From Solirubrobacterales bacterium 67-14 (GTDB lineage: Bacteria > Actinomycetota > Thermoleophilia > Solirubrobacterales > 70-9): a DNA stretch of 64,000 nucleotides. The notes below the pieces were generated by a model that saw nothing but the letters and a program-made list of their open reading frames with translations, did not search any database and was not told the DNA's origin. Position 1 is the first letter of the stretch. Each line of letters starts with the position of its first letter. Where the stretch lies: contig MKST01000007.1 in assembly GCA_001897355.1 (NCBI GenBank), positions 248,228 to 312,227 of the forward strand, in the 5' to 3' direction. Made by a program: the position numbers and the translations under genes. Below are positions 4,052 through 64,000 of the stretch, in pieces.

Positions 4052-4129
4052 ACATTATCAATTCCTATGCGTATGTGGTGATATTCCCATAAATATATAC
4101 TGAGAGTACTGTGTGGGAATATCACCACA
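4037..4129. promoter_or_regulatory. Putative HipB operator array
   Basis: TGTGGACATATCCACA (4037-4052), TGTGGTGATATTCCCATA (4074-4091), TGTGGGAATATCACCACA (4112-4129). The last two are inverted copies (16-nt perfect arms 4074-4089/4114-4129). Confidence 0.65.
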
Positions 4130-8833: not shown

Positions 8834-8879
8834 GCCCTCAACCTACTTCGTGCCAGACCGACCCGGACCAGGATGCGGT

Positions 8880-8922
8880 GAGGTTGAAGTTTGGAGCGCT
8901 ATGTGGCGGAAACTTCAACCTC
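8880..8922. repeat. 43-nt hairpin repeat, copy A
   Basis: GAGGTTGAAGTTT-GGAGCGCTATGTGGCGG-AAACTTCAACCTC; perfect 13-bp stem; homologous to copies at 22259 and 62488. Confidence 0.85.
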
Positions 8923-8992
8923 GATGCGTCCGGAGCTCCGATTCGTCGTTTTCGGCCAGGCGGTGTGTTCATATCGCGGAATCTCACACAAG

Positions 8993-22253: not shown

Positions 22254-22258
22254 CCACT

Positions 22259-22301
22259 GACCTTGAAGTTTCGAGCGCTATATGGCCGGAATTTCAACCT
22301 C
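22259..22301. repeat. 43-nt hairpin repeat, copy B
   Basis: GACCTTGAAGTTT-CGAGCGCTATATGGCCG-GAATTTCAACCTC; between convergent genes. Confidence 0.85.
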
Positions 22302-22314
22302 ACCGCAGGCCAGG

Positions 22315-24020: not shown

Positions 24021-24124
24021 AGTTCGAAATCGCCCCCGGCCGACGGTCCAGGCGCCGACAGCCGAGTTATCGGCAAATAGGTCTGAAAACTAGGCTGTGG
24101 GCCGCTTTGGGCCCGACGTCGAAG

Positions 24125-62289: not shown

Positions 62290-62315
62290 TAGCTCCGCAC
62301 GGGGCGCCCCCTGAC

Positions 62316-62343
62316 AAAAAACGCCCCCCGCAAAGGTGGCGCT
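62316..62343 (-). terminator. candidate rho-independent terminator after tRNA-fMet
   Basis: Minus strand GCGCCACC-TTTGCG-GGGGGCGT-TTTTT: ~8-bp stem with one mismatch then T-run. Confidence 0.55.
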
Positions 62344-62362
62344 TCTGGCTTTGTATCTGGGA

Positions 62363-62436
<74 letters not shown>

Positions 62437-62487
62437 GCGGACCGCTAATTCTAACACCGAAAGGGCGGCTGGAGGTTTGCCGGCAAT

Positions 62488-62530
62488 GAGGTTGAGAATT
62501 CGAGCGCTATTTGGCCGAAATCTCAATGTC
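62488..62530. repeat. 43-nt hairpin repeat, copy C
   Basis: GAGGTTGAGAATT-CGAGCGCTATTTGGCCG-AAATCTCAATGTC; compensatory changes relative to copies A and B. Confidence 0.85.
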
Positions 62531-62633
62531 GGTGGGGAGAGGCTAGTTTTCTCGGGGATTCCTGGGGTTCCGGGAGCCGGGACTGTGCGGATGTTGGGCG
62601 AGCCGGGGGAAGCGAGTAGTTAGTCTCACCGAC

Positions 62634-64000
62634 GTGGATCGCAAGTGGTTGTCTCTCGTCGCCGTGATCACCGGCATCTTCATGCTGCTGATCGACGTCA
62701 CCATCGTCAACGTCGCGCTGCCGGACATCGGTACGGATCTGAAAGCGTCGTTCACGAGCTTGGAGTGGGTGGTCAACGCCTACACGCTCACCCTCGCCTC
62801 CTCGCTGCTGGTGTCCGGCTCCCTGGCCGACCTGATCGGCCGCAAGCGGGTCTTCGCCGGCGGCCTGATCATCTTCTCGCTCGCCTCGCTGGCCTGCGCG
62901 CTCTCCGAATCCTCGCTGATGCTGAACCTGATGCGGGCGGTCCAGGGGATCGGCGGCGGCATGATGTTCTCGACCTCGCTGGCGATCGTCGGCCAGACCT
63001 TCCACGGCCATGAACGCGGGACGGCCTTCGGGATCATCGGCGCGACCACCGGCGCCGCGGTGGCGATCGGCCCGCTGGTCGGCGGCCTGCTCACCGACGC
63101 CTTCGGCTGGGAGGCGATCTTCTTCGTCAACGTGCCGATCGGGGCGATCGCGCTGCTGCTCACCATGCGCAACGTGGACGAATCGAAGGATCCGCACCCG
63201 GCCGGGATCGACTGGCTCGGCGCGGTCCTCTTCACCGCCGCCCTCTTCCTGCTGATCTACTCGCTGGTCCACGGCAACGACAAGGGCTGGGGCAGCTTCG
63301 AGATCATCGGCTCGCTGGTCCTCTCGGCCCTGCTGCTGCTCGCCTTCGGGACGGTCGAGCTGCACAAGGAACACCCGCTCTTCGACCTCTCCCTGTTTCG
63401 CCGGCCGGCCTTCGTCGGGGCCTGCGTGGTCGCCTTCTGCATGTCGGCCTCGCCCTTCGCCCTCTTCCTCTTCCTCACCTTCTACATCCAAGGCGGCGTG
63501 CTCGGCTACACCCCGCTCCAAGCCGGTCTGAGGTTCCTGCCGATCACCGGCATGATGCTGCTGGCCGGGCCGATCGCCGGACGCCTGACCACCAAGGTCC
63601 AGGTCCGCTACCTGCTGAGCGGCGGTCTGCTCGGGGTCGCGGTCGGCATCTTCCTGCTGCACGGGATCGACGTGAACTCGGGCTGGACCGCGCTGATCCT
63701 CGGCTTCGTCGTCGCCGGCATCGGCTCCGGTTTCGTCAACCCGCCCTTGGCCTCGACCGCGATCGGCGTGGTCGAGCAGCGCCGCTCCGGCATGGCCTCG
63801 GGGATCAACGCCACTTTCCGCCAGGTCGGCATCGCCGCCGGCGTGGCCGGGCTCGGGGCGATCTTCCAGAGCCGGGTCGGCAACCTGCTGGCCGAGCAGT
63901 TGAGCGGCACCAAGGCCGCCTCCCACAGCGACCAGATCTCGGCCGCGGTGACCGCCGGCCAAACCGAGACGGCGATCTCCCACATCCCCCACTCGATCGG
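62634..64000 (+). CDS. MFS transporter, DHA2 family, 3' partial
   Basis: GTG start, translation VDRKWLSLVAVITGIFMLLIDVTIVNVALPDIGTDLKASFTSLEWVVNAYTLTLASSLLVSGSLADLIGRKRVF...; open to window end, hence missing from the ORF track. Confidence 0.92.
   Translation, partial: MDRKWLSLVAVITGIFMLLIDVTIVNVALPDIGTDLKASFTSLEWVVNAYTLTLASSLLVSGSLADLIGRKRVFAGGLIIFSLASLACALSESSLMLNLMRAVQGIGGGMMFSTSLAIVGQTFHGHERGTAFGIIGATTGAAVAIGPLVGGLLTDAFGWEAIFFVNVPIGAIALLLTMRNVDESKDPHPAGIDWLGAVLFTAALFLLIYSLVHGNDKGWGSFEIIGSLVLSALLLLAFGTVELHKEHPLFDLSLFRRPAFVGACVVAFCMSASPFALFLFLTFYIQGGVLGYTPLQAGLRFLPITGMMLLAGPIAGRLTTKVQVRYLLSGGLLGVAVGIFLLHGIDVNSGWTALILGFVVAGIGSGFVNPPLASTAIGVVEQRRSGMASGINATFRQVGIAAGVAGLGAIFQSRVGNLLAEQLSGTKAASHSDQISAAVTAGQTETAISHIPHSI

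What the first reader, a model, noticed from the sequence alone, without database searches (positions are those of the whole stretch)
62488..62530. Hairpin copy C shows compensatory base-pair changes and lies ~50 bp upstream of tRNA-fMet
GAGGTTGAGAATT-CGAGCGCTATTTGGCCG-AAATCTCAATGTC. Stem pair 9/35 is A:T in A and B but G:C here; pair 10/34 is G:C in A, G:T in B, A:T here. Both partners changing together supports selection on structure. The tRNA gene is transcribed away from the element, and a DHA2 MFS gene starts 104 bp downstream on the + strand.
Basis: seen in the sequence. Interest (0 to 1): 0.75.

Follow-up and report, generated by a model that had tools for sequence, protein, structure and literature searches.

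The report
Mobile DNA hairpin with nuclease partner
The hairpin next to the start-tRNA gene is one of dozens of small, apparently mobile DNA hairpins in this actinobacterium; the same hairpins bracket a gene for an uncharacterised DNA-cutting protein (DUF559), which suggests a mobile-element system not described in the papers that could be searched here.

Summary
In detail: coordinates, copies, compensatory pairs and neighbours all check out. The reading as an RNA element tied to the tRNA is not supported. The hairpin is a solo copy of a dispersed 54-nt palindromic element: 21 copies with the exact tip GAGCGCTATNTGGC in this genome, about 100 in eight genomes of the genus. Tip and foot (GAG/CTC) are conserved; stems are species-specific yet self-complementary. 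Copies hug stop codons, avoid divergent gaps and show no strand preference. Copy C is absent from a sister species although the adjoining tRNA is identical and the MFS gene is 92% alike.

The same hairpins, with the genome's own stem, bracket an ~320-aa gene: AbiEi-like N-terminus plus DUF559/MTES_1575 (Vsr-like PD-(D/E)XK) nuclease with invariant catalytic-type residues. In the genus 30 of 39 such genes have matching hairpins on both sides; in a first sample 16 of 17 did, against about 1% of 309 control genes. Each protein lineage has its own hairpin family; a second family also has a solo copy in this window. Four further cases lie in other Actinomycetota.

Best reading: a REP/RAYT-like mobile palindrome system built on a Vsr-like nuclease instead of an HUH transposase. 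Mobility is inferred from comparison, not assayed.

The parts
62483..62536 (+). Hairpin copy C (the finding): solo copy of the palindromic element, tip GAGCGCTATTTGGC
   Evidence: absent at the orthologous place in G001
8875..8928 (+). Hairpin copy A, same family, divergent intergenic
22254..22307 (+). Hairpin copy B, same family; fills the gap between two convergent stop codons
24054..24102 (+). Solo hairpin of a second family (core TCGGCAAATAGGTCTGAAAA) whose other copies flank a different DUF559 gene of this genome (C11:494390-495313)
62363..62436 (-). tRNA-Met(CAT), neighbour, not part of the element
62634..63998 (+). DHA2-type MFS gene (runs off the window), neighbour, not part of the element
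   Evidence: 92% DNA identity to G001

Best explanation
Copy C is a non-autonomous (solo) copy of a mobile palindromic DNA element. The autonomous form is a hairpin - gene - hairpin unit whose gene encodes an AbiEi-like, DUF559/MTES_1575 (Vsr-like PD-(D/E)XK) endonuclease. In this genome the cognate unit is C11:869167-870387, between rplL and rpoB. Shown here: dispersal, hairpin covariation, cognate flanking hairpins, presence/absence differences between species for a solo copy and for a whole unit. Inferred: the nuclease recognises the conserved tip and foot of the extruded hairpin (cruciform or single strand), cuts DNA, and repair or strand transfer copies the hairpin, or the hairpin-gene-hairpin unit, to new intergenic sites. 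Insertions survive mostly just past stop codons. Stems may change sequence freely as long as they pair, so each species carries its own stem version.
For: Dispersed: 21 exact-core copies in G000, model hits in 9 of 18 genomes of the genus. Same tip, different paired stems per species. DUF559 genes: the upstream flank matches the downstream flank above the 99th percentile of 309 control genes in 16 of 17 (Fisher p = 1.5e-22); in the larger set 15/15 of the closest clade and 15/24 of the rest. The window's core, with 0-1 mismatches, flanks both sides of DUF559 genes in G000, G011, G012 and G015. For G011 and G015 these flanking stems match that genome's solo copies best (0.77-0.85 against 0.43-0.58 for other genomes); G000 0.75-0.81, close to G001 and G012. 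Catalytic-type residues D252, E263, H270, D279 are invariant in 32 proteins. Presence/absence: copy C missing in G001; hairpin in G007 just after a stop codon where G000 has none; rplL-rpoB holds hp-DUF559-hp in G000, another hairpin family with DUF559 in G014, a solo hairpin of a third family in G011, nothing in G006, G017, G008. Protein and hairpin similarity correlate (Mantel r = 0.42, p = 0.0002). Second family in G000: 19 places, reversed-pattern control 0. In another family of Actinomycetota (G076): about 17 places, including both flanks of a DUF559 gene.
Against: No biochemical or experimental evidence of cutting or movement. No clean target-site duplication could be read, because flanks have diverged. 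G010 and G013 hold the hairpins but no close DUF559 relative was found in these 86% and 73% complete assemblies; G009 and G014 hold close DUF559 genes flanked by other hairpins, so presence of hairpin family and protein clade agree only loosely (p = 0.03). Nine of 24 more distant DUF559 genes show no matching flanks. Some sites are occupied in several species, so not every copy is a recent insertion.
Confidence: 0.75

Rival explanations
1. Host-serving 3'-end hairpins: bidirectional transcription terminators or mRNA-protecting hairpins between neighbouring genes, spread or shaped for that role.
For: Copies sit a median of 12 bp past a stop codon (random spot in the same gaps 27 bp, p = 0.0008), are closer to the 3' end in 45 of 53 tandem gaps and avoid divergent gaps (p = 1e-6). 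Many convergent gaps consist of little but the hairpin.
Against: No T-run after the stem at copy C. Copies A and C lie in divergent gaps. Does not explain the conserved tip in both orientations, the species-specific stems or the matching hairpins on both sides of DUF559 genes. REPs show the same 3' bias (PMC3733652), so this role could be secondary.
Confidence: 0.15
2. Regulatory RNA or RNA-binding site affecting tRNA-fMet or the MFS gene.
For: Covariation and stable fold; slight excess of G:T over A:C mismatches (78 to 53, p = 0.04).
Against: Unrelated neighbours at other copies, random orientation relative to transcription, absent in the sister species beside the same genes, no Rfam family.
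Confidence: 0.04
3. Operator sites of the AbiEi-like DNA-binding part of the protein, i.e. a regulon, with the flanking copies serving autoregulation.
For: AbiEi-like N-terminal region (PADLOC AbiEi E = 1.6e-11 for L096; AbiEi_4 below cut-off); hairpins upstream of the DUF559 genes.
Against: Solo copies lie past stop codons rather than in promoters; a dimer site would not need arms that covary; the downstream copies are unexplained; presence/absence differs between species.
Confidence: 0.08
4. Arm complementarity is kept by palindrome-templated mutation (template switching between the arms) with no selection on the hairpin. This concerns only the covariation, not the mobility.
For: Long near-perfect palindromes are prone to this (established knowledge); tip orientation is flipped between species at one shared site (L101/L117) and flipped with a different stem at another (L102/L155).
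Against: Would not conserve the unpaired tip and the foot while stems change, nor make family-specific hairpins at both ends of the nuclease genes.
Confidence: 0.1

Closest known systems
REP / REPIN elements with RAYT transposases (REPtrons)
   Same: Small dispersed extragenic palindromes, mostly downstream of genes; a dedicated nuclease-type gene flanked by the same palindromes; several families per genome, each with its own gene (PMC3116915, PMC3733652).
   Different: Partner is a DUF559/Vsr-like PD-(D/E)XK protein with an AbiEi-like N-terminus, not a Y1 HUH transposase; none found in this genome. No GTAG tag; the conserved part includes the hairpin tip; element is 54 nt with a long stem.
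CGTC-tagged REPs (orphans without a known transposase)
   Same: Palindromic repeats not linked to RAYTs (PMC3733652).
   Different: No CGTC tag at the element end here; a partner gene is present.
MITEs with an IS partner
   Same: Non-autonomous short elements sharing ends with an autonomous unit.
   Different: The whole hairpin, not a short terminal repeat, is shared; no classical transposase; target duplication not seen.
Vsr-like (EDxHD) homing endonucleases
   Same: Vsr-like nuclease fold acting as a mobile gene (own knowledge).
   Different: Those lie in or near introns and phage genes; no dispersed cognate hairpins known to me.

Membership tests
REP/RAYT (REPtron) | Y1 HUH tyrosine transposase (PF01797) encoded in the genome | tested here: not met
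   0 matches in G000 and in all but one of the other 17 genomes of the genus
REP/RAYT (REPtron) | GTAG tetranucleotide at the foot of the palindrome | tested here: not met
   Consensus GCGGTGAGGTTGAAG..., no GTAG at either end
REP/RAYT (REPtron) | Many extragenic copies, mainly downstream of genes | tested here: met
REP/RAYT (REPtron) | Dedicated gene flanked by copies of the palindrome | tested here: met
   But the gene is DUF559, not RAYT
MITE | Target-site duplication on insertion | tested here: inconclusive
   Empty sites too diverged to read the junction
MITE | Autonomous partner with the same ends | tested here: met
Intrinsic terminator | GC-rich stem followed by a T-run | tested here: not met
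   0 terminator-like sites in 62300-62700
Rfam RNA families | Match at the gathering score | tested here: not met
   Only the tRNA matches
DUF559/MTES_1575 nuclease (partner gene) | Profile match and conserved D...ExD...H residues | tested here: met
   PF04480 E = 3e-9 for L096, above cut-off; the cognate protein of this element, L116, is below cut-off for PF04480 (18.7 against 20.6) and PF18741 (34.7 against 38.2) but 59% identical to L096; residues invariant in 32 proteins
AbiE type IV toxin-antitoxin | AbiEii toxin gene next to the AbiEi gene | not tested
   Only the AbiEi-like N-terminal similarity was seen
Integron attC sites | Integron integrase and attC core sites | not tested
   Considered from memory only

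The most novel reading that the evidence does not exclude
A class of mobile DNA in Actinomycetota in which a restriction-fold (Vsr-like DUF559) nuclease with an antitoxin-like DNA-binding domain spreads its own cognate hairpin, with each nuclease lineage owning a private palindrome family. New stem versions overwrite hairpins at existing sites, which would explain why orthologous sites carry species-specific stems (e.g. the L104 site in five genomes).
Probability: 0.45. Interest if true: 0.9.

Novelty: new variant of a known kind. Interest (0 to 1): 0.8.

Why it matters
DUF559/AbiEi-type proteins are common and often multi-copy in Actinomycetota (61 of 150 genomes sampled), and no function is given for the family. 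This gives them a testable job and a substrate. It would be a second, enzymatically unrelated way for bacteria to carry REP-like palindromes, and it offers a lead for palindromic repeats that have no known enzyme (for instance CGTC REPs, described as lacking a dedicated transposase). It also warns against reading covarying intergenic hairpins as RNA genes.

Tried and rejected
Rfam (no family). RAYT/Y1 transposase search (absent in this genome). Public viral contigs: no match to the core pattern; the genome collection gave only two Solirubrobacterales MAGs. Plasmids: no tblastn match to the protein. A terminator scan gave nothing. No solved structure matches the protein by sequence. The window hairpin 4074-4129 was followed up and is single-copy. 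The strand test for RNA (G:T against A:C) gave only a weak bias. Target-site duplications were looked for and could not be resolved. Paper searches on DUF559/AbiEi/Vsr with palindromes, hairpins or mobile elements found no prior report; the library holds open-access papers only.

Full report
Observation. The hairpin lies exactly where stated, 51 bp upstream of tRNA-Met(CAT) and 104 bp before the MFS gene. Its core occurs three times in the window against 0.29 expected. The two compensatory pairs are real and hold in 21 copies of the own genome; covariation exceeds all 500 shuffles and every slid register. Shuffles do not remove relatedness, so the stronger evidence is the comparison between species below.

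A dispersed family. The genome (3.23 Mb, 12 contigs; nearest named public relatives are Solirubrobacterales MAGs) holds 21 copies with the exact core GAGCGCTATNTGGC and more with variant tips. A covariance model finds the element in 9 of 18 genomes of the genus, one of them (G003) only weakly; the core-based pattern finds it in none of the 43 genomes tested from other genera of the family and order. Reading about 100 copies side by side shows that the tip and the foot are shared, but each species has its own stem: TTGAAGTT in G000, GCAGATCGG in G011, CGGAAAAGG (as well as TTGAAGTTACC) in G007, GGCAAAAGG in G015, answered by a complementary 3' arm. Inner-stem complementarity is 86% within a copy, 79% with another copy of the same genome, 57% with a copy of another genome.

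Where copies sit. In 96 intergenic cases 35 are convergent, 53 tandem and 8 divergent; divergent gaps are avoided (p = 1e-6). In tandem gaps 45 of 53 are nearer the 3' end of the upstream gene. Orientation relative to transcription is random. Gene calls are from a simple codon-usage caller of my own. A conserved tip that would be transcribed in either sense argues for recognition at the DNA level.

The partner gene. Some neighbouring copies bracket a gene of about 320 aa: AbiEi-like N-terminus and a DUF559/MTES_1575 domain, i.e. Vsr-like PD-(D/E)XK nuclease (MTES_1575 is described as a Vsr-type REase in PMC3710099). In an alignment of 32 such proteins D252, E263, H270 and D279 are invariant. 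I asked whether the region upstream of each gene matches the region downstream. Sixteen of 17 DUF559 genes exceeded the 99th percentile of 309 control genes; the two highest controls were two records of one DUF559 gene that the motif filter had missed. With more genes, 15 of 15 in the closest clade and 15 of 24 others have matching flanks. The matched flanks are palindromic hairpins, a different one for each protein lineage, and hairpin similarity follows protein similarity (Mantel r = 0.42, p = 0.0002). The window's own core flanks both sides of DUF559 genes in G000, G011, G012 and G015. In G011 and G015 these carry the stem typical of that genome's solo copies; in G000 they resemble G000, G001 and G012 copies alike; G012 has a single solo copy for comparison.

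Mobility. Copy C is missing in G001: the tRNA and its flank are 94% identical over 106 bp and the MFS gene 92%, while about 90 bp including the hairpin are absent. G007 carries a hairpin directly after a stop codon where this window has none. The rplL-rpoB spacer holds hairpin-DUF559-hairpin in G000, a unit with another hairpin family in G014, a solo hairpin of a third family in G011, and nothing in G006, G017 and G008. These are differences between species; direction (gain or loss) is inferred. Conversely, several sites are occupied in many species (L104 site in G000, G001, G007, G010, G011) with stems that often follow the species, and tip orientation differs at two sites. The clearest case is G011, whose copy at that site is 0.90 identical to its own paralogues and 0.48-0.59 to its orthologues; between G000, G001 and G007 orthologues can be as alike as paralogues. 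This points to replacement or re-insertion at old sites in some lineages and is not explained in detail.

Generality. A second family in the same genome has 19 places, one in this window (24054-24102) and two flanking its own DUF559 gene. In other Actinomycetota, DUF559 genes of G076, G092, G098 and G151 also have matching flanks, and the G076 hairpin is dispersed at about 17 places. Short stand-alone DUF559 proteins mostly do not show this.

Known systems. It works like REP/RAYT units (PMC3116915, PMC3733652) but is not one: no Y1 transposase in the genome, no GTAG tag. CGTC REPs are described as lacking a dedicated transposase, which makes a second enzyme type of interest. No paper found links DUF559 or AbiEi-DUF559 proteins to palindromic repeats, within an open-access library.

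What is shown and what is not. Shown: the family, its structure, its cognate flanking of a nuclease gene, presence/absence between species. Inferred: that the nuclease moves the hairpin, that it reads tip and foot, and the route (cut and repair or strand transfer). A secondary role as a transcript-end hairpin remains possible.

Noticed in passing
window 24054-24102: Solo hairpin of a second palindrome family (19 places in the genome) cognate to another DUF559 gene.
   Followed up: yes
window 4074-4129: Long hairpin (18-bp stem, 20-nt loop) upstream of an HTH-type gene; single copy in the genome, not part of the family.
   Followed up: partly
L126:2609-11054 (G011): What looks like a kdp potassium-transport operon (KdpD/E/A/B/C-like) lies between two hairpins at the site where G000, G001 and G010 have one hairpin; hairpins may bound movable gene blocks.
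   Followed up: partly
L190:2001-2690 (G010) and the L104 site: The same intergenic site holds different extra genes beside hairpins in different species (SLOG-type gene in G010, multicopper oxidase-like gene in G000).
   Followed up: partly
L102/L155 and L101/L117: At shared sites the hairpin tip points in opposite directions in different species, as if the loop had been inverted or replaced.
   Followed up: no
L243 (rplL-rpoB spacer, G000): A perfect GC-rich hairpin GACGAAGGGCGCC-CCAG-GGCGCCCTTCGTC between rplL and rpoB, shared with G011.
   Followed up: no
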